Origin: Candidatus Gastranaerophilales bacterium | GTDB taxonomy: Bacteria > Cyanobacteriota > Vampirovibrionia > Gastranaerophilales > CAJFVJ01 | Assembly (NCBI GenBank): GCA_944323485.1 | Contig: CALUSR010000002.1 | Location: 194,048 to 258,047 of the forward strand | Length of the DNA stretch: 64,000 bases | Direction of reading: 5' to 3' | Part shown: one piece after another, positions 21,438 through 49,239 of the stretch | Position numbering within the stretch: the first letter of the stretch is position 1 | Layout of the letters: the number at the start of each line of letters is the position of its first letter | The notes under the pieces: model-generated | Databases searched by the model: none | Told to the model about the DNA's origin: nothing | What the model saw: only the letters and a program-made list of their open reading frames with translations | Translations under genes and position numbers: made by a program

Positions 21438-22094
21438 ATGGACAATAAGATTATAAAAATAACCAAAAATAAATTGAATTTTGTCGGCATATCAGTCAAA
21501 CCCGACACAACCGAAGACTCGGGGATTGCTGTTCTTGATGAAGATTTGAATATCAAATACATAGATAAAGCTTACAGACTCAACGACATAAAATTCTTTG
21601 TAGAAAATCTCAGCAACAAAGACAGCCTGATTATCTCTATTGATATCCCGCTGAATAATATGTTTCTCATCGGAAAATGGAGGCAGGAGTCAAAACATTA
21701 TCATTGTTTTACTGTCGGAACATCTTACAGTTCAAAACAAATTTGGAGCACAAGGCAGAGCTCAAGAGGCTCAGAAATTGCTCAAACATTGAAAGAAGAA
21801 GGATATGACGTATTCAGATACAACTCATCCTATTCAAAATGTGCTCTCAGCCTGACATATCCGCTGAAATCTCGTTCACCTGCCGGATGTAAATATTTTC
21901 AGGAAATGCTCAAACAAAAACTTGGTATAAGCGGATTAACAAACAATATAATGTCTTTTTCTGCTCTCGATGCCATATTAGGTGCATATACAAGCTGGCA
22001 GATTTATTATGGTGAACAAAATAAAACATTCAAAATAGTCAACAACTACAAAGACATCCCCGTAATAAGCCCTATTGAAAAGATATCGTGTTGA
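21438..22094 (+). CDS. DUF429-like predicted nuclease
   Basis: 218 residues. The pattern FVGISVKPDTTEDSGIAVLD, then IISIDIPL, a Ser/Arg-rich region (RQSSRGSEIAQTLKEEGYDV) and SALDAILGAYTSW resembles DUF429, an RNase-H-like fold with acidic residues at the start, in the 'D.P' strand and in the C-terminal 'DA..cA' helix. Biochemical function is unknown. ATG 21438 follows a TATAAT by six bases, without a ribosome site, a likely leaderless start. The 3' end overlaps the convergent zincin-like gene by 23 bases. Confidence 0.55.
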   Translation: MDNKIIKITKNKLNFVGISVKPDTTEDSGIAVLDEDLNIKYIDKAYRLNDIKFFVENLSNKDSLIISIDIPLNNMFLIGKWRQESKHYHCFTVGTSYSSKQIWSTRQSSRGSEIAQTLKEEGYDVFRYNSSYSKCALSLTYPLKSRSPAGCKYFQEMLKQKLGISGLTNNIMSFSALDAILGAYTSWQIYYGEQNKTFKIVNNYKDIPVISPIEKISC

Positions 22095-22836
22095 ACTTAT
22101 ATCCCTTCAAAATAGAGTTCTCTTTCAAATTGTGATTGGGACTCTCCAGAGGTAAACTGCCGTATTTTTCATCAATTCTTTTCAACAAAGCTGTTTTTTT
22201 AGGGTCTTCATCAAAAAACAACTTTGAATATAAAACGACTCCGTCATTCACTATGTTTGAAGATGATGCTTCAAATACATACGGATATTTCCTCGAATGA
22301 TAACGATTAGCGAGCGCATTCATCGCCAGAGCGTCAAATTCTTCCTGAATTGACGCCTCAACATCATCATCCTTTGCATGCGTTGTTTCATGCAGTACCG
22401 CTTCTGATATTGCCAGTATATCAGCAAAATTACGGGTATTTGAGTATGCTTCATTAATCAATATATTTTTTTGTCCGTTATCTTCCTGAAACTGGGCATG
22501 GTGTCCGAGTGAGGGAAGCGGTGCGAATTTTATGGAAATATTTTCATCTCTTATATAATCTACAGCTTCCTTCCCTGAGTTGAAAGCAATATTAACTCCT
22601 ATATTTTCCATATGGGCCATATCTTCCTGAGAAAACTCAACTTCTGATAAAAAGTTTATAGCCTGTCCTAAAATAAAATTATCCATCCCGGGATTGAAAT
22701 AATTCATACTTACAGGAGGCATCTCTTTCATAGCAAAAGACTGCACGCCTGGTGAACTTACCTGCCTTTCCGGCTGATTTTTGGCGAAATATGGATTTGA
22801 ATTGTATGAAACGGGATATATTTTATTTATAAACAA
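22072..22836 (-). CDS. Zincin-like protein with HExxH motif, lineage-type N terminus
   Basis: 254 residues. The central VLHETTHAKDDDVEASIQEE contains HETTH, the HExxH zinc-binding and catalytic signature, followed 11-16 residues later by Glu residues that could be the third ligand. The N terminus (INKIYPVSYNSNPYFAK) is the short Asn-rich leader that also opens other small proteins here and shows no signal peptide. A metallopeptidase role is plausible but the family is not one I can name. Start is TTG 22836, weakly supported. Confidence 0.6.
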   Translation of the reverse strand: MFINKIYPVSYNSNPYFAKNQPERQVSSPGVQSFAMKEMPPVSMNYFNPGMDNFILGQAINFLSEVEFSQEDMAHMENIGVNIAFNSGKEAVDYIRDENISIKFAPLPSLGHHAQFQEDNGQKNILINEAYSNTRNFADILAISEAVLHETTHAKDDDVEASIQEEFDALAMNALANRYHSRKYPYVFEASSSNIVNDGVVLYSKLFFDEDPKKTALLKRIDEKYGSLPLESPNHNLKENSILKGYKFNTISFQ

Positions 22837-37935: not shown

Positions 37936-38364
37936 TCAGTCTTTTTTGTTCTTAATCCAGAAACCTTCTGTTCCCTTAGGAACAACTCTCGTAAATCCTA
38001 GGATATTATTCTTTACTTCATATCCTTCAGGCAGCTCTCTTGTTCCATTTGTAAGCTTAAAGATATTATTTTGAATTGTATAAGAATATCCTGCCTCTGC
38101 CATAGCATTTCTTCTGAATTTTGCATTCTTCGGAAGCATACCGGTTTCATTAATCTGCTTTACCTGCTCTTTTGTAAGACGGCGGAACGCCAGTCTGAAA
38201 AATCCAATTTTTGGAGGTTCTTTTTGAGTGGATAACTCAACACTATCCCCCTTGTTTTCTGCAGGTTTCGGAGCAGGAGCATTGAATGCATCAAACGGAG
38301 TTTTGGCAACTGCCTCTGTACCTTTGAACGAAGCTGAATTTACATTTATTCCATCTACATTCAT
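37936..38364 (-). CDS. Hypothetical protein with SFKG leader
   Basis: 142 residues. N terminus MNVDGINVNSASFKG is a short Asn/Ser-rich leader ending in FKG, followed by an Ala/Pro linker and a compact domain (about 55-142) with repeated NxF/NxI turns: IQNNIFKLTNG and VKNNILGFTRVV. KEQVKQINETGMLPKNAKF may be a helix-loop module. I see no signal peptide or membrane segment and no named family. Good AAGGGAGA ribosome site; monocistronic with its own terminator. Confidence 0.75.
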   Translation of the reverse strand: MNVDGINVNSASFKGTEAVAKTPFDAFNAPAPKPAENKGDSVELSTQKEPPKIGFFRLAFRRLTKEQVKQINETGMLPKNAKFRRNAMAEAGYSYTIQNNIFKLTNGTRELPEGYEVKNNILGFTRVVPKGTEGFWIKNKKD

Positions 38365-40402: not shown

Positions 40403-40419
40403 CACATAAATCACTTTAT

Positions 40420-40493
<74 letters not shown>

Positions 40494-40504
40494 TTTTTTA
40501 TTTC

Positions 40505-40544
40505 AATGGTTTTCAGAAAATCTGAAAACCATTATTTATTTTCT
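40505..40544 (+). terminator. Hairpin terminator after tRNA-Arg
   Basis: 13-bp perfect stem AATGGTTTTCAGA (40505-40517) / TCTGAAAACCATT (40521-40533), loop AAA, followed by an A/T-rich stretch with interrupted T-run. Confidence 0.7.
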
Positions 40545-40575
40545 GCTCTTAATTTGCGATTTTGAACACGATTAA

Positions 40576-40908
40576 TACTGGTGCGACGGCGTCATCTGGG
40601 ATGAAACCGCACAAAACCTGATTACAAACAAAGGCTGGAGTGTTTCTTGCTCTTATGATGTAAAACTGGCAGACGACGCAGGCGGAACAGAAAATAATAT
40701 TCCGTATGATATTGAATTCTTGGATGGAATATTTACCCACCTTGCAATCGTTGACAATCCGCGCTATGAGCGGGCAAATATCGTTTTTAATTCAAAGACG
40801 GTAGTGAAGAACGAAAATCATAACGTACAGGTAATTGAACAACTGTTCCAAGAGGCGGTTGACGAGGTCTTGCGGGAGATAGAACAAAATGAAAAATTTA
40901 ACACCTGA
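40576..40908 (+). pseudogene. Phage DUF2213-type (prohead protease-like) remnant
   Basis: A 110-codon open stretch with no proper start, directly after an in-frame TAA at 40573. It reads YWCDGVIWDETAQNL, then NKGWSVSCSYDVKLAD and FLDGIFTHLAIVDNPRYERA, which fits the C-terminal part of phage DUF2213 proteins ('g.SvgY.v...f......hlAiv..pR...A'). The N-terminal two thirds are missing. Base composition is visibly richer in G+C than the rest of the accessory region. The tail after NENHN differs from what the family usually has; a fitting tail is instead found at the end of the 41335-43497 gene. Confidence 0.7.
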
Positions 40909-41044
40909 AAGGCAAAAAGAGTTTAGAGAATTGCATTACAAATTATTAGAGCAAGCATTATTAGAATTTAAAAAACATAATTTCGCACCTGCTCCATTGA
41001 GCTTGACATTTAAAGAAGTTATAGATTTATCTATGCAGGAATAA
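40889..41044 (+). CDS. Small phage-type ORF, 51 residues
   Basis: Begins at ATG 40889 with GGGAG at 40875-40879 and overlaps the end of the DUF2213 remnant by 20 bases, so it was probably translated by coupling. Sequence MKNLTPERQKEFRELHYK, then LLEQALLEFKKHNFAPAPL and TFKEVIDLSMQE: helical, charged, no signal or membrane segment. No family recognised. Its 3' end overlaps the opposite-strand small ORF by 14 bases. Confidence 0.5.
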   Translation: MKNLTPERQKEFRELHYKLLEQALLEFKKHNFAPAPLSLTFKEVIDLSMQE

Positions 41045-41240
41045 TATCTTTTATTGAAGGATATAAAAACATTTTTTTATCATATTCAAATATTGCATCA
41101 ACAAAGATATATTCTTGTTCTTTATTATTTATCACTTGTTTATAAGGAACTTTAAAATAAAAACCTTCCAGTGTTGTGATTGCAATATTTTCACAATTCT
41201 TCAGCTCGTTTAATTTGTTTTCAATTTCACTAGTCTTCAT
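41031..41240 (-). CDS. Small hypothetical protein, 69 residues
   Basis: From ATG 41240 with GGTGGTGAG just upstream. KTSEIENKLNELKNCENIA, then an alternating strand-like region VPYKQVINNKEQEYIFVDAI and MFLYPSIKDIIPA. It is the only - strand gene between the phage remnant and the polyvalent protein. No family recognised; a cognate antitoxin for the neighbouring nuclease-like domain would be conceivable but there is no direct evidence. Confidence 0.5.
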   Translation of the reverse strand: MKTSEIENKLNELKNCENIAITTLEGFYFKVPYKQVINNKEQEYIFVDAIFEYDKKMFLYPSIKDIIPA

Positions 41241-41334
41241 GTTCTCACCACCTTTCATTGCAATTGCGGTTAATTACATGAAACATTACGGATGAGGGCA
41301 TGGGAGATTATTTAATAAAATTTTAAGGTTTGGT

Positions 41335-43497
41335 ATGAATACAATAAAAGAATATATTAAAACACTGTTAAAACTTGCTATAAACAACAACCCCGAAGTT
41401 TTGAAGGTTATAAGAAACTCTAAGGCGGTTATAGCGAACTATAGACCAGATCAAAAAAGAATTAAAGGTCGTTTTGCGTATGAAGGGGGAAATGATTTAA
41501 AGGTTTTGTATCGTAAGGATAATACTCCTATAGATGTTACTTATTATAAAAATGATATAGAAGAAATCCCTGCTTTCAATATAAGAGATTTAAGATTTAT
41601 AGGAAGAAGCCCTGAAAGTGTACGCAAAGACGAAATTAAAGACGCTGTTCTTTTAGGAATGGAAAAAATTTATGCTACGAATAAAATTTCTAATATTGAA
41701 GCGGCCATAACAAATAACGGCTTAAAAGAAATGGTCGGAGAGATTTTCAAGAATAAGGATGAAAAAGAATACTCTTTATTAAAAAAAGAAATTATTGCCA
41801 AAGTCCAAAATATATTTGAAGAATCAATCCCAATTTTAAAACATAATGAACTTAAAAATCCGAATTTATTTGATAACCAAATTATTCATAGATTCGCTTT
41901 ACCTATTCAAATAGGACAAAACGAGTTTTTAACAATGCTCACAGTAAAAGAAAGGGCTGATTTTGAAGAATTAAATATAGATGAGTTCTCTATTTATGAT
42001 TTGAATTCAAAAAAACAGACATCTGACCGTTACTCCTCGCTTGATGATTCAACCGATGGCCGTAGTCAAATGTCTATCTATAGTGTAGACGATTTGAAAC
42101 AATTTGTCAATACTGAATTACATAATAAATATGGAGAAAATCGCAATATAAATATAGATAACGACAAATGGATAACTATTCACCCGAACGGGGAAGACAG
42201 CAAAGGACGCCCGCTTTTGCTTAAAGACGGTGAAAATGTCTACGAAGCAATGCAACGGCAATGGGGAATTTCTTCCCCCGGTCAACTGCATTTATTTTCC
42301 GTAAGCAAATATAAATCCGACAAAAATTATAAAAAAGAACTGGATACAAAAATTGCCGAACTTAACAAAAACATAGAAACATCAAAGAGGGATGAAGCAT
42401 ATAAAGAAGCAAAAAAAATAAATGATGAATGGGAATCTTCCGATATGCCCGTATCCGAATATTCAGCAAAGGCAAAACGATTTGAAGAAAGATTCGGACG
42501 CTCTTTAGCCGAAGTTACAAGAGAATTAAGGAGCAAAGAGGCTTCAATAAAAAACTATAACAAAGATCAACCGAGAGTGCCTAAAGGGAATCCCAATGGC
42601 GGGCAGTTTGTACGGCAAAATGGTACGAATAGCCCTAAACCCAAAATAAGAGATTATAAAACATATTTAAATAAGCATAAATCAATGGGGTTAGTTGAAA
42701 AATATCCACCTGATTTTATGGGCATTACCGATGATGATATAGCAAATTTTCTTGGGATAAAAGAGAATAAGCCGGCGGTCTTTCATACACCGGTTGAAAC
42801 TGTAAAGATTTATAGAAATAATTTCAAACATATAAGACACGAAACAGATAAAAGCAGGCTTTTAGGACTAGGAAGAGCCATAAGAACATTACAAGAACCA
42901 AATCTTATTATCCAAGACGGGAAAGAAAATTATTATATAAAATTCTTTGATAAAAGCAGTAATAATAAAATTCATTTACAAGTTATAAAAACTACCCAAA
43001 ATGGGGGCTTTTACAAAACTAATTTCCCAATGAGCATAAACAAATTTGAGAAATTAGAAGGACAAGTCATTTATGACTTGTCCAGCAAAAGAGGTTTAAC
43101 CTCTATACCCACTATAACAAAAGTTAAAAGCAATTTCAACCCTGATATGAAGAAAAATGTACATAACAATAAGGAGCAGGACATGGCACTACTGGACGAA
43201 CTTAAAAAACTGATTACTAAGGTCGAAAACGACAAAGGAGAAGATATGGACAAAGAAAAAGCAAAAAATGAAAAAGTCGACAAGCGTAAGCTTATTGACG
43301 AAGTAGCAGGCATTATGAAGTCTGCCGGAGCTGACGACGAACTTATCAGAACAGCAATCGGAAAAATGGAAAAACTCGCTTACGATAAATCCGAAGCAGG
43401 CACAGCCGACAATGCCTGCGAAGAAGTAAAGAACAAGATAACCAAGTCCCTCACACTCAATCAAGAACAGTTAAAAAAATATTCAAATATAATCTAA
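41335..43497 (+). CDS. Phage-derived polyvalent protein with PBECR-like nuclease-toxin domain
   Basis: 720 residues without signal or membrane segment. Recognisable blocks: about 170-230 an LPD3-like region (HRFALPIQIGQNEFLTMLTV then IYDLNSKKQ); about 330-400 a helical/coiled part; about 415-432 the phage head-protein motif QPRVPKGNPNGGQF; about 500-590 a small domain FKHIRHETDKSRLLGLGRAI to IHLQVIKTTQNGGFYKTNFP, which matches the pattern of phage Barnase-EndoU-ColicinE5/D-RelE-like (PBECR) nucleases. The last 100 residues (ALLDELKKLITKVENDKGED onward) look like a DUF2213 tail. Such proteins are injected or packaged by phages. Start ATG 41335 has no good ribosome site. Confidence 0.65.
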   Translation: MNTIKEYIKTLLKLAINNNPEVLKVIRNSKAVIANYRPDQKRIKGRFAYEGGNDLKVLYRKDNTPIDVTYYKNDIEEIPAFNIRDLRFIGRSPESVRKDEIKDAVLLGMEKIYATNKISNIEAAITNNGLKEMVGEIFKNKDEKEYSLLKKEIIAKVQNIFEESIPILKHNELKNPNLFDNQIIHRFALPIQIGQNEFLTMLTVKERADFEELNIDEFSIYDLNSKKQTSDRYSSLDDSTDGRSQMSIYSVDDLKQFVNTELHNKYGENRNINIDNDKWITIHPNGEDSKGRPLLLKDGENVYEAMQRQWGISSPGQLHLFSVSKYKSDKNYKKELDTKIAELNKNIETSKRDEAYKEAKKINDEWESSDMPVSEYSAKAKRFEERFGRSLAEVTRELRSKEASIKNYNKDQPRVPKGNPNGGQFVRQNGTNSPKPKIRDYKTYLNKHKSMGLVEKYPPDFMGITDDDIANFLGIKENKPAVFHTPVETVKIYRNNFKHIRHETDKSRLLGLGRAIRTLQEPNLIIQDGKENYYIKFFDKSSNNKIHLQVIKTTQNGGFYKTNFPMSINKFEKLEGQVIYDLSSKRGLTSIPTITKVKSNFNPDMKKNVHNNKEQDMALLDELKKLITKVENDKGEDMDKEKAKNEKVDKRKLIDEVAGIMKSAGADDELIRTAIGKMEKLAYDKSEAGTADNACEEVKNKITKSLTLNQEQLKKYSNII

Positions 43498-43516
43498 GAT
43501 AAGATATTATACTCTT

Positions 43517-45442
43517 ATGCCAATTCTGAAAAATATATTGCTAACTTCTTTGTTACTTTCTTCGCTGATCTGTTTTGCCTCTACAGACAAGACATATCGT
43601 GTTATCAAGGTTATAGACGGAGATACGGTTTATATTGACTTCAACAAAGACGATTTTCCTCAAAAAGAAGAAAAAGTCAGACTTAACGGCATTGATACAT
43701 TTGAAGTTAAACCATCAAAATTTCTTGAATATCAAATGAAATCAATGAACCTCTCTCAAGAGGAAGCTCTCGGACTGGGATATCTCGGGAAAGAATTTGC
43801 GAAAAAACACCTCCTCAACAAATATGTACGGGTTGAGTATTCAGGAGATAAAAAATTTTGCGATATGGGCAGACACCTCATATCCATCAGGTATGACAGA
43901 GGGAAAAGCTATGAGCAGGAAGTGCTGAAAGCAGGGCTAGGTGTCGTATATAGAGATTCAAATATAGCTGATGAGCTTTATCAATATGAAGATATGAACA
44001 AAATAAAAAAGAATGCCCAAAAAGCCAGCTCACTCAATCTTGTACTGCTCAATAAAAAGAACGGAAAGTATCATAAACCGACTTGTGAATATGGTCTGAT
44101 GTCCTCGGATGTAGAATTGATAAAAAAGCCCTTCTTGAAATACCATGGAGCAGGGTGTTGTTTTGATGTTAAGAAAAAAAGGAAAATACAATCAACTGCT
44201 TCATTCTCTAGTGATAGCATTGAGATTTATTTTTTAGACCCTACTGTTGACTATGATAATATTGAGAATGCCGCTCTAAATAGGCTATTAAATCTAATTT
44301 ACAGTGCAAAAAGAAGAATATATTTTGCCATCTATGGAATATCTGAAAATAATGTCATAGATGCACTAATAAAAAGATATATTGAAAAAATTGATATAAA
44401 ATGGATTACTGATGTCAATAAATATGGAAACAATAACTACAGCAGAACTGCTTTTTTGCAAAATAAAATTCCTGTATTCAAAACAGATATTACAAATGAG
44501 GAGTTAAAATTCAGAAGCAAACAGAATGTTACATTTTATATCAAAAATCAAGAAATTAATGCAACATTCAATGATTCAGAAATTCAATATTTTACTGACC
44601 AACTTATGCACAATAAATTTTTTATCTTTGATGAAGATATAGTTACGACAGGAAGTGCAAATATTTCCACCTCTGGTATTGGAGGGAGTCTAAATACAAA
44701 TGCAAATGATTTTATTGTAATAAATTCGTCAGAAATAAACAAAATATATTCACAAGAATTTATACAAATGTATCGTGGACAGTTTCATCGTTCTAAATCA
44801 AAAATAGAAGGCAAAAAGAATTTAAGGTTATTTGATGGCTCACTCATTTCTATTTATTTTGCACCTATTGATAAAGACTTTATGGCTGATGTATCAAATA
44901 TAATTAATTCAAGCCAAAAATTTGTATATGTGCCAATGTTTTATCTTACAAATGAAAGTTTAGCTCAATCGCTTATAAATGCAAAAGAAAGAGGCGTAGA
45001 TGTTAGAGTTATTCTTGATGCATCTTCAGCAATGAGTAAATATTCCAAACATAAAATTTTAAGAATAGCCAATATTCCTGTTAAAATTGAAAACTGGCGA
45101 GGAAAAATGCATATGAAATGCTTAATTACCGAACGTTATGTTGTCACCGGCAGTTTAAATTGGACAAGTAGAGGACAATATTTTAATGATGAAAATTCTT
45201 TAATAATAGAAAATCCACAAATATCAGAGGTTTATAAAAATCACTTTCTTTCCTTATATAATCAAATACCTGATAAATGGTTGTGGAAAGACCCTAAACC
45301 AGAAGGAAAAGATACCCCGGGTTCTTGCTCTGATGGTATAGATAATGACCATGACGGATTCACAGATATGGGGGATTATGATTGTAATCCACATGCGCTG
45401 CAAGGTAAACCATATGAAGACTATTATGAGAAACAAAAATAG
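43517..45442 (+). CDS. Secreted SNase-PLD fusion nuclease (pair 1)
   Basis: 641 residues, exported (signal ILLTSLLLSSLICFAS). Residues about 25-155 are a staphylococcal-nuclease domain (YRVIKVIDGDTVYIDF, EKVRLNGIDTFEV). A Cys/His element follows (GKYHKPTCEYG to YHGAGCCFD, about 185-215). From about 230 the rest is a phospholipase-D-fold nuclease with two HKD motifs, HNKFFIFDEDIVTTGSANIS (about 365) and HMKCLITERYVVTGSLNW (about 531). It ends with CSDGIDNDHDGFTDMGDYDC, a Cys-capped Asp-rich calcium-loop type motif. Codon use shifts to much more A/T after about 44200, between the two nucleases. Convergent with the PP-loop gene 28 bases downstream. Confidence 0.85.
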   Translation: MPILKNILLTSLLLSSLICFASTDKTYRVIKVIDGDTVYIDFNKDDFPQKEEKVRLNGIDTFEVKPSKFLEYQMKSMNLSQEEALGLGYLGKEFAKKHLLNKYVRVEYSGDKKFCDMGRHLISIRYDRGKSYEQEVLKAGLGVVYRDSNIADELYQYEDMNKIKKNAQKASSLNLVLLNKKNGKYHKPTCEYGLMSSDVELIKKPFLKYHGAGCCFDVKKKRKIQSTASFSSDSIEIYFLDPTVDYDNIENAALNRLLNLIYSAKRRIYFAIYGISENNVIDALIKRYIEKIDIKWITDVNKYGNNNYSRTAFLQNKIPVFKTDITNEELKFRSKQNVTFYIKNQEINATFNDSEIQYFTDQLMHNKFFIFDEDIVTTGSANISTSGIGGSLNTNANDFIVINSSEINKIYSQEFIQMYRGQFHRSKSKIEGKKNLRLFDGSLISIYFAPIDKDFMADVSNIINSSQKFVYVPMFYLTNESLAQSLINAKERGVDVRVILDASSAMSKYSKHKILRIANIPVKIENWRGKMHMKCLITERYVVTGSLNWTSRGQYFNDENSLIIENPQISEVYKNHFLSLYNQIPDKWLWKDPKPEGKDTPGSCSDGIDNDHDGFTDMGDYDCNPHALQGKPYEDYYEKQK

Positions 45443-45470
45443 TTTAAAGATGACAAAAATTGCATTTGTT

Positions 45471-46289
45471 TTATTCAAAACTATCTATATCTAAAATTCC
45501 AAAAAAATTTTTATCTTTCTTTTCTTTAAGTAATTTTTGTGCTTTTTTTTCAACTAAATTTTTGTAATCATTTCTTATTTTCTGCATATTCTCAGGTTTT
45601 ATCATATCCTCTAATGCCATATCACAGTTCCATCCAAAACGACTTTTTCTCTCTGTATTTTCTACCTTCTTTTCATATTCCATCGCTTTAAAAAATAAGT
45701 CTTTATGATTTTCATAAAGATTTAGCCAATCATTTTTAGACTGATACATACAGAAATAGCACCCAGAACGTTTTCTCCATTTATAATAATCAGGATAGCC
45801 TATTCCAAATTTTTCAAGAATATTTTCAATATCTTTTCTTCTCTGCTGATTTTCGACAAAAGGATAAATTGCTTTAATTATACTATCATTATTCTTACTG
45901 CTTAATGTTCGTTCTTCTTCATCAGCTCTTATTCCAATATACATATTTACAACCCCTTCCCAATTTTTTTGAAATAGGTCATAGACATATTTTCTAAATA
46001 CTTTTGTTTTCATCTCAACAGTACACCATCGCTGATGAACAGAAGGAAGATAGCCATAAATTGTCATCAAATGCTCAAAACTTTTTTCAGGCTTTATTCT
46101 TGTTATCTTTTTCCCTAAAAATACTTCAATTTTGTTCAAATAATCATATGTCTCAGGCAACTCGCATTCTGTATCACAAAAAACAAGCTCCGTATTCTCA
46201 AAAATTTCAGGCATATTCTCTTTCATGAAAAATGCTAACGCCGTAGAATCCTTCCCTCCTGATAAACTTAGTATATGATACTCTTTCAT
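45471..46289 (-). CDS. PP-loop ATPase of PAPS-reductase/DndC-like family (pair 1)
   Basis: 272 residues. ATP-pyrophosphatase loop SLSGGKDSTALAFF (SGGKDS at 10-15); RWCT with Cys 89; GIRADE at 119-124; RSGCYFCMYQ with Cys 177 and 180; YPDYYKWR before it. The group is found in phages and mobile elements and in DNA phosphorothioation (DndC). The C-terminal ECGIH motif of true assimilatory PAPS reductases is absent. It faces the SNase-PLD gene. ATG 46289 has AGGAGCAGGAG upstream. The first 29 residues are identical to those of its paralogue at 47673-48458; the rest is about half identical by eye. Confidence 0.83.
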   Translation of the reverse strand: MKEYHILSLSGGKDSTALAFFMKENMPEIFENTELVFCDTECELPETYDYLNKIEVFLGKKITRIKPEKSFEHLMTIYGYLPSVHQRWCTVEMKTKVFRKYVYDLFQKNWEGVVNMYIGIRADEEERTLSSKNNDSIIKAIYPFVENQQRRKDIENILEKFGIGYPDYYKWRKRSGCYFCMYQSKNDWLNLYENHKDLFFKAMEYEKKVENTERKSRFGWNCDMALEDMIKPENMQKIRNDYKNLVEKKAQKLLKEKKDKNFFGILDIDSFE

Positions 46290-46367
46290 CTCCTGCTCCT
46301 TTATACAAAAAAGTTCTGTAGAAATTCTACAGAACTTTTTCTTTCAAAATAAGAAGCTAAAAACTTA
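46204..46367. repeat. 164-bp direct repeat, copy 1
   Basis: Matches 48373-48536 with only two mismatches (near 46344-46345). It covers the first codons of the PP-loop gene, its ribosome site, a 33-base palindrome and 27 further bases ending exactly where copy 2 meets the stop codon of the 48534 gene. Both edges are abrupt. Period between copies is 2169 bases. Confidence 0.95.
46308..46340. terminator. Palindromic terminator-like hairpin, copy 1
   Basis: AAAAAGTTCTGTAGAA / TTCTACAGAACTTTTT around a central A. On the - strand it is upstream of the PP-loop start and followed by six T, so it may act as an attenuator here; no - strand gene ends in front of it in this copy. Confidence 0.7.
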
Positions 46368-46418
46368 CTAATCAAAAACTATCCATTGAATAATATTTAA
46401 TATAAGATATGATATGTC

Positions 46419-47693
46419 ATGATTTCAAAAAAAACATTACTCTTATCAATAATACTTCTATCATCTCTGACATGCTCTGCTCAGGCCACAGTCATTAACT
46501 CTAAAAAATATACATCAGCTAACTTTTTACAAAATAAAGATTATAGCATAGACCTGATGTTTAACTATCCTTATTACAAAACCCCATCAACAAAAGCCAG
46601 AACTAAATCAGCTAAGGTTTTGCTTTATGAACTGAAAAATGAAACAAAATCTCTTGATTTTATGATGTATGGAATATACGATCAACCAGACATTTTTAAT
46701 GAAATTGTTTACTTATGTCATAAACCAAATATAAAATTAAGAGGAATTGTTGATGTAAATACAAAAGGACAAAATGATTATGCAGATACGCATAAACTAA
46801 AATCTTTGTGTTGCAAGATTAAAACAGATTTTTCCCAAAAAGATGAAATGAAAAATTACTATGATAAACAAAAGAAACTTGGTTACCTAATGCATAATAA
46901 AGTTTTTGTCTTTTCAAATAACCATGTATGGACCGGCTCTACAAATATAAGTTCAACATGTTCTGGAGGCTATAACGCAAATGTTGCTTATCTTATAAAA
47001 GATAGACAAGTTGCTGATTTATATAGACAGGAAATCGAGCAAATGTATGAAAGAGAAAAATTTCATACCGATAAAGAAAAAATTGCAAAAAGAAATATTT
47101 CATTATCAGATGGAACTCTTTTGAGCGTATACTTTTCTCCTAATGAAAAAATTATGAATGAATCAATTCTACCAAGCTTTAGAAATGCTAAAAAATATAT
47201 TTATATAGGGATGTTTTACTTTACCAACCAAAAACTTGTTAAAGAACTCATTAGCGCTCATAAAAGAGGTGTTGATGTAAAAGTCATAGTCGATGCATCT
47301 TTTGCCAATAACTATAGATACAATATAGATATTATGAGGCAAGAAGGGATAAAAGTTAAAGTAGAAAATTGGGGAGGAAAAATGCATTGCAAAATTGCTG
47401 TAATAGATGATGAAAAAGTCCTTACAGGTTCGTTAAACTGGACAAAATCGGCAGTTAATTTTAATGATGAAAACTTTCTTGAAATAAAAAGTAAAAGGAT
47501 AGCAAATGAATCAAAGAATTATCTTGAAAATCTTTGGATGTCCATTCCAGATAAATGGCTAAAAGAAATACCTTATGCAGAGGGACTTGATTCAAAAAAT
47601 TCTTGCAATGACGGAATTGATAACGACCATAATAACTTAACAGATAAAGAAGACCCTAAATGCATTAAAAGCTCAAAAATATTCAATAAGTAA
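46419..47693 (+). CDS. Secreted PLD-family nuclease (pair 2)
   Basis: 424 residues, exported (KTLLLSIILLSSLTCSAQA). It carries the phospholipase-D fold without an SNase domain: first HKD in MHNKVFVFSNNHVWTGSTN (about 157), second in MHCKIAVIDDEKVLTGSLNW (about 321), then IPDKWLKEIP and the Cys-capped CNDGIDNDHNNLTDKEDPKC at the end. The same order and end motif as the C-terminal part of the pair 1 nuclease shows they are paralogues. A TATGAT lies five bases before ATG, no ribosome site. It overlaps the convergent PP-loop gene by 21 bases. Confidence 0.83.
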   Translation: MISKKTLLLSIILLSSLTCSAQATVINSKKYTSANFLQNKDYSIDLMFNYPYYKTPSTKARTKSAKVLLYELKNETKSLDFMMYGIYDQPDIFNEIVYLCHKPNIKLRGIVDVNTKGQNDYADTHKLKSLCCKIKTDFSQKDEMKNYYDKQKKLGYLMHNKVFVFSNNHVWTGSTNISSTCSGGYNANVAYLIKDRQVADLYRQEIEQMYEREKFHTDKEKIAKRNISLSDGTLLSVYFSPNEKIMNESILPSFRNAKKYIYIGMFYFTNQKLVKELISAHKRGVDVKVIVDASFANNYRYNIDIMRQEGIKVKVENWGGKMHCKIAVIDDEKVLTGSLNWTKSAVNFNDENFLEIKSKRIANESKNYLENLWMSIPDKWLKEIPYAEGLDSKNSCNDGIDNDHNNLTDKEDPKCIKSSKIFNK

Positions 47694-48458
47694 ATTATTT
47701 TGCATTTCTTTTGAAGAATTATTCAGATATTTTTCTTTAATTTTTTTTATATTATAAGGCTTTATCATCTCTCTTAATGGAGCAAAAGAACACCATGTAA
47801 AAAGTTTTTCCTTTGACTTCCTTCCTTTCTCTTCGTAGTACATTGCTTTTTCATATAGCTCAGGATGATGTTCATAAAGATTTATCCAATCAATCGGCTT
47901 TTGATAAAAGCAAAAATAACAACCGTTTCGCTCTCTCCACTTGTAATAATCAGGATAAAAAATACCATTATCTATAAGAATCTTTTCAACATCTTTTTTA
48001 CAAATATAATTCTCTACAAAAGGATAGATTCCTTTTGATATTTTCTTCTCCTCTTCCGTTTTTGGAGAAAGCCCTTTCCTCCAGCTTTCATCAGCTCTTA
48101 TAGCTATATAAAAGTTAAAAATACCATTTCCTTGTTCTTGTATTCTTTTAAAGATATAATTCCAAGATGTTTTTACTTTTAATTCTATAGTGCAATATCG
48201 TCTATGTGGAGCAGGAATTAAAAAACTTGTGTGAAAAATATGGTCAAAGCTTTTTTCAGGTTTTATCCTGATAATTTTTTTATTTAGGAATACTTCTATT
48301 TTATTCAAATAGTCATAAGTTTCAGGCAAATCGCAACCAGTATCATAGAACCAATATTCTATTTTTTTATGTATTTCAGGCATATTCTCTTTCATGAAAA
48401 ATGCTAACGCCGTAGAATCCTTCCCTCCTGATAAACTTAGTATATGATACTCTTTCAT
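47673..48458 (-). CDS. PP-loop ATPase of PAPS-reductase/DndC-like family (pair 2)
   Basis: About 261 residues from ATG 48458. Same layout as the pair 1 protein: SLSGGKDSTALAFF, YDTGCDLPETYDYLN, RYCTIELK, AIRADE and RNGCYFCFYQ with YPDYYKWRER before it. All residues expected for ATP binding and both Cys groups are retained, so both copies look active. Its 3' end overlaps the convergent PLD gene by 21 bases. Upstream sits a terminator hairpin that ends the preceding - gene; the expression of this gene must therefore start between the hairpin and the ATG or read through. Confidence 0.83.
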   Translation of the reverse strand: MKEYHILSLSGGKDSTALAFFMKENMPEIHKKIEYWFYDTGCDLPETYDYLNKIEVFLNKKIIRIKPEKSFDHIFHTSFLIPAPHRRYCTIELKVKTSWNYIFKRIQEQGNGIFNFYIAIRADESWRKGLSPKTEEEKKISKGIYPFVENYICKKDVEKILIDNGIFYPDYYKWRERNGCYFCFYQKPIDWINLYEHHPELYEKAMYYEEKGRKSKEKLFTWCSFAPLREMIKPYNIKKIKEKYLNNSSKEMQNNLLIEYF

Positions 48459-48536
48459 CTCCTGCTCCTTTATACAAAAAAGTTCTGTAGAAATTCTACA
48501 GAACTTTTTCTTCAAAAATAAGAAGCTAAAAACTTA
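48373..48536. repeat. 164-bp direct repeat, copy 2
   Basis: Counterpart of 46204-46367. The right edge coincides with the TAA of the 48534-48956 gene, showing that this copy is in the ancestral position and that the terminator belongs to that gene. Confidence 0.95.
48477..48509. terminator. Rho-independent terminator, copy 2
   Basis: Same 16-bp palindrome as at 46308-46340; here it directly follows, on the - strand, the gene that stops at 48534, with a T-run after it. Confidence 0.9.
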
Positions 48537-48956
48537 GTATCTCATCATCCTGTTCATATAATCAGCGGCATCACGTCTTCTCTGCTGGTCAAGATACTGC
48601 TGTTGTCTGCGTTCCATCTCAAGTTTTTTCTCTTCCTGCTCTTTTTCCCATTTTTCGTTCTTTTTCTTTTCTTCTTCTTTCAGTTTTGTATAACACTCAT
48701 TCAGCTCATCATCTTTATATTTTGTCTGGCAGAGGTCAACAGCTTCTCTGAACTGTTTTTTTCGTTCGAACCAGTAATCATTATCTGGACCGAGTTTTTT
48801 TGCATCCCAAAATCCTGTGCTTTCTCTTGCATCAAGATATTTATCAGGACAAAATTCACTCCATTGAGGTACAAGCACAATATCAGCATTAGCATACCCC
48901 GAAAATAAAACAACACTGCAAAGAGTGCAAAATAATATAACAAAAATCTTTTTCAT
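48534..48956 (-). CDS. Exported coiled-coil protein, unknown function
   Basis: 140 residues. Signal peptide KKIFVILFCTLCSVVLFSGY with likely cleavage after NA (ANA-D). The mature part has four Cys (in FCPDKYLD, DLCQTKYKD and NECYTKLK, one in the signal) and then a charged helix of about 60 residues rich in Glu, Lys, Gln and Arg (EEEKKKNEKWEKEQEEKK), probably a coiled coil. ATG 48956 has AGGAG. It borders the PLD/PP-loop array, and its terminator is duplicated with the array; a functional link is uncertain. Confidence 0.75.
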   Translation of the reverse strand: MKKIFVILFCTLCSVVLFSGYANADIVLVPQWSEFCPDKYLDARESTGFWDAKKLGPDNDYWFERKKQFREAVDLCQTKYKDDELNECYTKLKEEEKKKNEKWEKEQEEKKLEMERRQQQYLDQQRRRDAADYMNRMMRY

Positions 48957-49080
48957 ATAAAACTCCTCATAATATTGTGTAATCATTTTATATTTTTAGA
49001 AAAATACTGTCAATGAACATACACCAAGACGCAATAAAAATTATTCATAAACTTAAATATTATTAAAGGAGATTAAAACA

Positions 49081-49239
49081 ATGAACGTGTCAAATATTTC
49101 TTTCGGAAAAGTCTTATACTCATATAAAGCAAAAAAGGACAAATTAGAAGCAGAGAGAACAGAAATAGAACGACTCTGCAAAGATAAAAATATCAGCCTG
49201 AAAACAAGTACCTGCAAAATCTACGATGATATTTACTAA
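49081..49239 (+). CDS. Small SFGK-leader protein, 52 residues
   Basis: ATG 49081 with AAAGGAGA nine bases upstream. N terminus MNVSNISFGKVLYSYKAKK follows the same Asn/Ser-rich leader plus SFGK pattern as other small proteins here; the rest is a charged helix (KLEAERTEIERLCKDK) and a short Cys-containing end. No signal or membrane segment. It stops one base before the end of the convergent MlaA fusion gene. I cannot assign a function. Confidence 0.65.
   Translation: MNVSNISFGKVLYSYKAKKDKLEAERTEIERLCKDKNISLKTSTCKIYDDIY

What the first reader, a model, noticed from the sequence alone, without database searches (positions are those of the whole stretch)
43517..48536. Tandem convergent pairs of secreted PLD nuclease and PP-loop ATPase
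Seen: two units in a row, each with a + strand exported HKD (phospholipase-D fold) nuclease and a - strand PP-loop protein meeting tail to tail (28-base gap; 21-base overlap). Known: PP-loop proteins of this group include DndC, which acts in DNA phosphorothioation; PLD-fold enzymes include nucleases used in defence and in secretion. Inference: a two-gene module in which an exported nuclease is paired with a cytoplasmic nucleic-acid or nucleotide modifying enzyme, perhaps conferring self-protection, as in toxin-immunity or modification-nuclease systems. I know of no described system with this pairing.
Basis: partly seen in the sequence, partly recalled or inferred. Interest (0 to 1): 0.85.

Follow-up and report, generated by a model that had tools for sequence, protein, structure and literature searches.

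The report
Exchangeable SspD-like enzyme and exported nuclease
Gut bacteria related to cyanobacteria carry interchangeable gene pairs, one an exported DNA- or RNA-cutting enzyme and the other a relative of a DNA sulfur-marking enzyme, which move between species as matched sets, so this looks like an undescribed marking-and-cutting or toxin-and-protection system.

Summary
In detail: two tail-to-tail pairs, 28-base gap and 21-base overlap. The pairing is not accidental. In 383 genomes of the order (Candidatus Gastranaerophilales) the same convergent pair recurs in 52 characterised cases; 44 overlap at their stops. The PP-loop protein is not DndC-like but belongs to the SspD family: its closest relatives elsewhere lie in real sspABCD operons. 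A third part lies outside the window: a single-copy gene for a winged-helix plus C-terminal SspC fragment, co-occurring with the SspD-like gene (29 genomes with both, 10 with one, 344 with neither; p = 2e-33) and in many genomes sharing its leader. SspB is missing. The variable parts of SspD-like protein and PLD are strictly matched (Mantel r = 0.85) and spread between genera as one block, while the SspC fragment stays behind; one prophage contig carries all three genes. Orphan SspD-like genes exist; full-length paired-clade PLDs without one were not seen. Best reading: an Ssp-derived, multi-allelic modification/nuclease module in which the SspD-like enzyme protects against its matched exported nuclease. 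Chemistry, target and place of action are inferred, untested.

The parts
43517..45442 (+). PLD1: exported SNase + double-HKD PLD nuclease, C-terminal acidic disulfide repeat
   Evidence: (PF13091 1.6e-41, PF00565 3.2e-6); catalytic H/K of both HKD motifs at least 90% conserved in 34 homologues; signal peptide by eye
45471..46289 (-). PP1: SspD-like PP-loop enzyme, convergent with PLD1
   Evidence: PADLOC SspD 3.9e-84; AlphaFold pLDDT 90, best PDB matches PAPS reductases and tRNA sulfur transferases
46290..46345 (-). PP1 leader: RBS and terminator-like hairpin AAAAAGTTCTGTAGAATTTCTACAGAACTTTTT
   Evidence: near-identical in PP1, PP2 and the sister species
46419..47693 (+). PLD2: exported double-HKD PLD nuclease without SNase domain
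   Evidence: PF13091 5.9e-44; type shared with six PLDs of another family
47673..48458 (-). PP2: SspD-like PP-loop enzyme, 3' end overlaps PLD2 by 21 bases; ATG at 48458
   Evidence: PADLOC SspD 8.1e-79
48459..48514 (-). PP2 leader: same hairpin as PP1
46071..46370 (-). copy 1 of the 300-base repeat (PP1 5' end plus leader), probable recombination segment
   Evidence: 86% identical to 48240-48539; about 90% identical to sister species while the interiors are not alignable as DNA
48240..48539 (-). copy 2 of the 300-base repeat (PP2 5' end plus leader)
40419..40494 (+). tRNA-Arg (TCT) at the edge of the island
41335..43497 (+). phage-derived LPD3 / PBECR2-like gene next to PLD1 (prophage remnant; context, not a core part)
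   Evidence: PF18798 1.6e-7; PF18810 1.1e-5, just below cut-off

Best explanation
A multi-allelic, horizontally exchanged modification/nuclease module derived from the Ssp DNA-phosphorothioation machinery. SHOWN by sequence: (a) each cassette is an SspD-like PP-loop gene tail-to-tail with an exported double-HKD (often SNase-fused) nuclease gene; (b) one further gene per genome encodes a winged-helix + C-terminal SspC fragment without the ATPase, often unlinked, and in many genomes sharing the SspD leader; (c) the variable part of the SspD-like protein and the PLD domains are inherited as one matched block, exchanged between genera through the conserved SspD 5' end and PLD 5' end. INFERRED: the SspD-like enzyme, brought to nucleic acid by the SspC fragment and supplied with sulfur by a housekeeping cysteine desulfurase, places a type-specific mark (phosphorothioate or another PP-loop product) on the cell's own nucleic acid; the matched exported nuclease cuts nucleic acid lacking that mark, either DNA entering through the periplasm (phage, transformation) or that of neighbours. 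The SspD-like protein is thus the protective half. The tail-to-tail layout puts both variable 3' regions side by side, so one recombination swaps both specificities together.
For: 52 convergent pairs, 44 overlapping at the stops. SspD membership by profile and by the operon context of the nearest outside homologues. SspC-fragment co-occurrence, Fisher 2e-33. Shared leader: 43 hits in 18 of 383 genomes, all carrying a PP gene, PP fragment or the SspC-fragment gene; the hits whose flanks I read lie just upstream of one of these; reversed control 0. Matched inheritance: Mantel r 0.85 against a null maximum of 0.11; all 68 unit pairs with at least 70% identical SspD variable parts have at least 68% identical PLD; SspD N-terminus uncoupled, r 0.15. 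Homology blocks run from about the PP ATG to the PLD signal region with unrelated flanks. 13 of 14 multi-member types span genera, up to 96-99% aa identity, while SspC fragments of the genomes compared are 71-81% identical. Paired PLDs are separate from lone core PLDs apart from a few basal sequences. Orphan or tandem PP genes and disrupted PLDs beside intact PP occur; in 31 PP genomes no full-length paired-clade PLD lacks a PP. Complete module in a phage contig between portal/neck genes and an XRE gene. Catalytic PP-loop, R[WY]CT and GCxxC motifs kept in 64 of 64.
Against: SspB is absent (28 of 29 genomes) and SspC lacks its ATPase, so phosphorothioation as in Ssp may not occur. The C-terminal CxxC of true SspD is lost in PP1, PP2 and 58 of 64 cassettes. 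A nuclease outside the cytoplasm does not obviously need self-DNA protection. Matched inheritance could follow from linkage in block transfer alone. The PLD-loss asymmetry is modest statistically, the loci were mostly found through the PP gene, and some frameshifts may be assembly errors in metagenome-assembled genomes.
Confidence: 0.42

Rival explanations
1. Toxin-immunity pair without nucleic-acid marking: the PLD is an exported effector against competitors (or toxic before export) and the SspD-like protein has been recruited as a specific cytoplasmic antagonist that binds or chemically inactivates its cognate PLD, or modifies an RNA target such as tRNA.
For: Matched variable regions, orphan and tandem PP genes, PLD disruption with intact PP, phage carriage; loss of SspB, of the SspC ATPase and of the C-terminal CxxC argues against the original chemistry; PP-loop folds near tRNA sulfur transferases.
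Against: All PP-loop catalytic motifs are kept in 64 of 64, unlike a pure binding protein; the SspC fragment with a DNA-binding-like winged helix co-occurs; convergent rather than co-directional order is unusual for toxin-immunity genes.
Confidence: 0.27
2. Envelope-level superinfection or transformation barrier carried by prophages: the exported nuclease degrades any incoming DNA, and the PP/SspC-fragment pair is a regulator or marks prophage DNA only.
For: Complete module in an IMG/VR phage contig with two DNA methyltransferase genes; cassette after capsid and terminase genes in L253; tRNA-Arg and phage remnant in the window.
Against: Does not explain why PP and PLD variable regions are matched, nor orphan PP genes kept without PLD.
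Confidence: 0.15
3. Two useful genes hitch-hiking together: an extracellular nutrient or biofilm nuclease and a sulfur-metabolism PP-loop enzyme linked only because they travel on the same phages.
For: A lone SNase-PLD gene of the same family is near-universal in the order (347 of 383 genomes hold a homologue), so a housekeeping secreted nuclease exists.
Against: Strict orientation and overlap in 52 units, genome-level co-occurrence with an unlinked SspC fragment (p 2e-33), separate clade of paired PLDs, no paired-clade PLD without PP.
Confidence: 0.1

Closest known systems
Ssp DNA phosphorothioation systems (SspABCD with SspE or SspFGH)
   Same: SspD-family PP-loop enzyme (PADLOC 4e-84); a protein homologous to the C-terminal third of SspC; nearest outside homologues of the PP lie in sspABCD operons
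   Different: No SspB, no SspC ATPase, no dedicated SspA, no SspE/FGH in the loci read; SspD paired tail-to-tail with an exported nuclease, present in 1-7 matched allelic types per genome; SspC fragment single-copy and often unlinked
Type-4 (phosphorothioation) BREX (BrxC/SspC, BrxP, DUF4007; PMC12839542)
   Same: Shares the SspC-like and PAPS-reductase-like components
   Different: No PglZ, BrxL or DUF4007 seen in the loci read; BrxP profile only 2.7e-12 against PP1
Dnd systems and PbeABCD (HKD-helicase effector; PMC10853773)
   Same: PP-loop enzyme of the DndC/SspD superfamily together with an HKD nuclease
   Different: DndC profile only 5e-5; in Dnd/Pbe the HKD nuclease is cytoplasmic and helicase-fused, here it is exported
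Polymorphic toxin-immunity systems, including phage MuF toxins (PMC5576092)
   Same: Conserved 5' ends with exchangeable matched 3' parts, orphan protective genes, phage carriage
   Different: Convergent genes, catalytic PP-loop enzyme instead of an immunity protein, Sec signal instead of a specialised trafficking domain
Secreted PLD-family nucleases (NucT/Nuc type) and SNase nucleases
   Same: HKD catalytic motifs, signal peptide, SNase domain
   Different: Clade always found with an SspD-like partner

Membership tests
Ssp system (SspABCD) | SspD: PP-loop ATP pyrophosphatase of the SspD family | tested here: met
   PADLOC SspD 3.9e-84 and 8.1e-79; 47% identity to a Sinorhizobium SspD in an sspABCD operon
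Ssp system (SspABCD) | SspC with N-terminal AAA+ ATPase | tested here: not met
   Only positions about 748-1052 of the 1054-residue profile matched, with an added N-terminal winged helix
Ssp system (SspABCD) | SspB nickase (DUF4007) | tested here: not met
   PF13182 absent from G000 and from 28 of 29 PP-carrying genomes
Ssp system (SspABCD) | SspA cysteine desulfurase | tested here: inconclusive
   None seen at the loci read; two strong aminotransferase-V/desulfurase-type genes elsewhere in G000, which could serve in trans as IscS does for Dnd (PMC7464106)
Ssp system (SspABCD) | C-terminal CxxC of SspD in addition to GCxxC | tested here: not met
   Lost in PP1, PP2 and 58 of 64 cassettes, kept in six
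Ssp system (SspABCD) | Phosphorothioate in genomic DNA | not testable with these tools
   needs LC-MS/MS
Ssp system (SspABCD) | SspE or SspFGH effector | not tested
   No dedicated genome-wide search; none recognised in the neighbourhoods read
Dnd system | DndC-type PP-loop enzyme with DndB/D/E | tested here: not met
   DndC 5.4e-5 and 7.3e-4 against SspD 4e-84 and 8e-79; TIGR03183 16 bits against cut-off 290
Assimilatory PAPS/APS reductase (CysH) | Above family cut-off and in a sulfur-assimilation operon | tested here: not met
   phosphoadenylyl-sulfate reductase model 16 bits against cut-off 154; 52 of 64 units lie beside a PLD, no assimilation genes in the neighbourhoods listed
Exported PLD-family nuclease | Two HKD motifs and export signal | tested here: met
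   signal peptide by eye only
Polymorphic toxin-immunity | Adjacent, specificity-matched partner | tested here: met
Polymorphic toxin-immunity | Orphan protective genes, no unprotected toxin | tested here: met
   (loci mostly ascertained through the PP gene; asymmetry small in number)
Polymorphic toxin-immunity | Toxicity and specific neutralisation | not testable with these tools
   needs expression assays

The most novel reading that the evidence does not exclude
A restriction-modification-like system whose nuclease works outside the cytoplasm: a type-specific sulfur mark placed by an SspD-like enzyme with an SspC-derived adaptor, read by a matched secreted nuclease, so that DNA is sorted into self and non-self at the cell envelope or in the surroundings, with about 28 exchangeable specificities shared by phage-borne cassettes.
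Probability: 0.3. Interest if true: 0.93.

Novelty: new variant of a known kind. Interest (0 to 1): 0.8.

Why it matters
The known phosphorothioation systems act inside the cell. Here the SspD enzyme has been separated from its nickase and ATPase, tied to an exported nuclease, and turned into a set of interchangeable matched cassettes that move between genera. If the inferred function is right, it would be a kind of self/non-self recognition of nucleic acid in the envelope or outside the cell, and the allelic cassettes would be a natural experiment on what decides SspD specificity, which PMC7464106 leaves open (no target recognition domain shown). It also gives a function to test for genes now annotated as PAPS reductase and PLD-domain protein in animal-gut Gastranaerophilales.

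Tried and rejected
Tandem duplication as the origin of the two units: rejected, different types. General dispersed repeat or integron site for the upstream element: rejected, it occurs only in genomes with PP or SspC-fragment genes. Known riboswitch for the leader: no Rfam match; covariation modest, one pair with changes on both sides. A complete Ssp set elsewhere in the genome: SspB not found; SspC fragment stands alone in G000. Viral contigs with the window PLD sequence: none by the pattern search. PDB fold match for the SspC fragment beyond its winged helix: none. A solved SspD structure as template: the only sequence hit in the PDB was PptA 21fy (8e-6); I found no paper on it. A prior description of the pairing: not found in the open-access library; subscription papers and preprints were not searched. 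DNA third-position conservation of the PP 5' end: amino-acid conservation is high there but fourfold sites are not unusually conserved, so the 5' end is protein-conserved across the order and DNA-identical only within recent exchanges. A first regular-expression count of HKD motifs in Python was wrongly written ('PLD motif <2' lines) and is not used; the alignment is.
Full report
CHECK. The two pairs are present exactly as described: PLD1 43517-45442 (+) / PP1 45471-46289 (-), 28-base gap; PLD2 46419-47693 (+) / PP2 48458-47673 (-), 21-base overlap. PP2 is better started at the ATG at 48458. The PP proteins score PADLOC SspD at 4e-84 and 8e-79, DndC only marginally.

RECURRENCE. Among 383 genomes of the order, strong PP matches are in about 34 genomes and PLD homologues in 347. 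I fetched the PP loci with flanks and mapped both genes: of 64 distinct full-length PP genes, 52 have a PLD within 200 bases in convergent order, 44 of them overlapping at the stops by 4-33 bases. The rest are at contig ends, are extra PPs in tandem in front of a pair (L080, L081, L101), have only a PLD remnant (L088) or a disrupted PLD (L013), or lack a PLD (L072, L083, L100, L136).

A MATCHED, MOBILE BLOCK. Across unit pairs, identity of the PP variable part (after residue 60) and of the PLD domains is coupled: Mantel r 0.85, highest of 999 permutations 0.11; no mismatched pair; the conserved PP N-terminus is not coupled (r 0.15). DNA homology between units of the same type starts at about the PP start codon (or its leader) and ends at the PLD signal-peptide region, with unrelated flanks. 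There are 28 types at 68% identity; 13 of 14 multi-member types span two to six genera, some at 96-99% amino-acid identity. In the sister species at the same site, the SNase end of PLD1 (window 43471-44166) and the PP 5' ends (46003-46370; 48240-49136) are about 90% identical but the interiors show no DNA alignment: the adjacent variable halves of both genes were replaced together. The tail-to-tail order makes that possible in one event; this last point is inference.

A THIRD COMPONENT. In about 16 loci the gene before PP encodes a 455-residue protein that is a winged helix plus the C-terminal part of SspC (PADLOC SspC 2e-41, profile 748-1052 of 1054; no ATPase). In nearly all carrier genomes it is present in a single copy, often unlinked: 29 genomes have both, 5 PP only, 5 this gene only, 344 neither (Fisher 2e-33); the exceptions are mostly incomplete genomes or hold PP fragments. 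In G000 it stands alone at C2:33904-35277, about 160 kb before the window. Its N-terminal fold resembles winged-helix DNA-binding domains (Sso10a, CggR) in a confident model. PP and this gene share a leader in many genomes (ACCTCYTG-N26-46-TGCARGGAGTARC followed by a terminator): 43 hits in 18 of 383 genomes, all carrying a PP gene, PP fragment or the SspC-fragment gene; the hits whose flanks I read lie upstream of one of these; reversed control 0. The window units have a different leader with the same plan, a hairpin just before the RBS.

ORIGIN. The nearest homologues outside the order lie in genuine Ssp or Ssp/BREX loci (Sinorhizobium, Thermomicrobium, a cyanobacterial plasmid, an Acidobacterium). 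The module lacks SspB (28 of 29 genomes) and the SspC ATPase; most cassettes, the window's included, lost the SspD C-terminal CxxC but kept the PP-loop, R[WY]CT and GCxxC in 64 of 64. The predicted PP structure matches PAPS reductases and tRNA sulfur transferases. An IMG/VR contig carries the full module after portal, minor head, neck and two DNA methyltransferase genes; another cassette follows capsid, tail and terminase genes. In the window a tRNA-Arg and phage remnants adjoin, so carriage by temperate phages is likely.

WHICH HALF PROTECTS. Intact PP genes occur without an intact PLD: none present (L072, L083, L100, L136), remnant (L088), in-frame stops (L013 in the sister species, L076), frameshift (L074, L130, L138), and extra PPs in tandem. 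In 31 PP genomes every full-length PLD of the paired clade lies beside a PP; the PLDs without one are, with few exceptions, the single core PLD of each genome, which falls outside the main paired clade, plus SNase-only fragments. In L125 PLD is internally deleted and the PP-loop is mutated (SGGKDY), as if both decayed. This points to PP as the protective half, though numbers are small and loci were mostly found through PP.

MECHANISM AND DOUBT. I judge a matched modification/nuclease module most likely (0.42), against a non-marking toxin-immunity pair (0.27), a prophage envelope barrier without matched marking (0.15) and hitch-hiking (0.10). Shown: anatomy, recurrence, coupling, co-occurrence, shared leader, mobility, homology. 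Inferred: enzymatic product, target, place of action, protection. The main objection is that an exported nuclease does not obviously need self-protection in the cytoplasm; entry of foreign DNA through the periplasm, kin-derived DNA, or leakage before export would answer it, but none was tested.

KNOWN OR NEW. I found no description of this pairing in the open-access library. It should not be filed as an Ssp system, because SspB and the SspC ATPase were tested and are missing; it is an Ssp-derived variant that may work in a new way.

Noticed in passing
L112:5830-5985, L158-L171 upstream of the SspC fragment; 43 places in 18 genomes: A conserved, probably structured leader (helix CUCYUG/CARGGAG with one compensatory pair, terminator before the RBS) in front of sspD-like and sspC-fragment genes; not in Rfam. 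Candidate novel cis-regulatory RNA or operator.
   Followed up: partly
L139-L143, L057-L071 and most genomes of the order: A single-copy PLD gene (often with an SNase-like N-terminus) without any PP partner is close to universal in Gastranaerophilales; a likely core extracellular nuclease of unknown role.
   Followed up: partly
window 40419-43497: tRNA-Arg followed by remnants of phage head genes and an LPD3/PBECR2 gene (possible phage MuF-type toxin); decayed prophage insertion site.
   Followed up: partly
L083:5950-11588: An orphan SspD-like gene directly beside a CBASS-like operon (patatin, nucleotidyltransferase, ThiF/E2-like and JAB-like proteins, by eye).
   Followed up: no
L151 (MT835926.1): A human faecal phage contig encodes DUF4007-like, SspC-like and SspD-like genes followed by a protein with a PLD/helicase-like start (by eye); looks like a phage-borne Ssp system.
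   Followed up: no
window 37936-38364, 22072-22836; L185, L187: Many small hypothetical proteins of this lineage begin with a similar peptide ending in FKG/FQG/FGK (e.g. MNVDGINVNSASFKG); possibly a shared N-terminal signal.
   Followed up: no
L195 (G040:C9:45439-46101 beside 46127-47482) and G247:C8:43098-43667: SNase-only fragments of the PLD gene remain next to the SspC-fragment gene, apparent scars of a deleted cassette.
   Followed up: no
PLD C-termini, e.g. window 45324-45383: Acidic repeat CxDGxDNDxDGxxDxxDxxC (NF033662, below cut-off) ends many of the PLDs; may bind calcium or anchor the enzyme.
   Followed up: no
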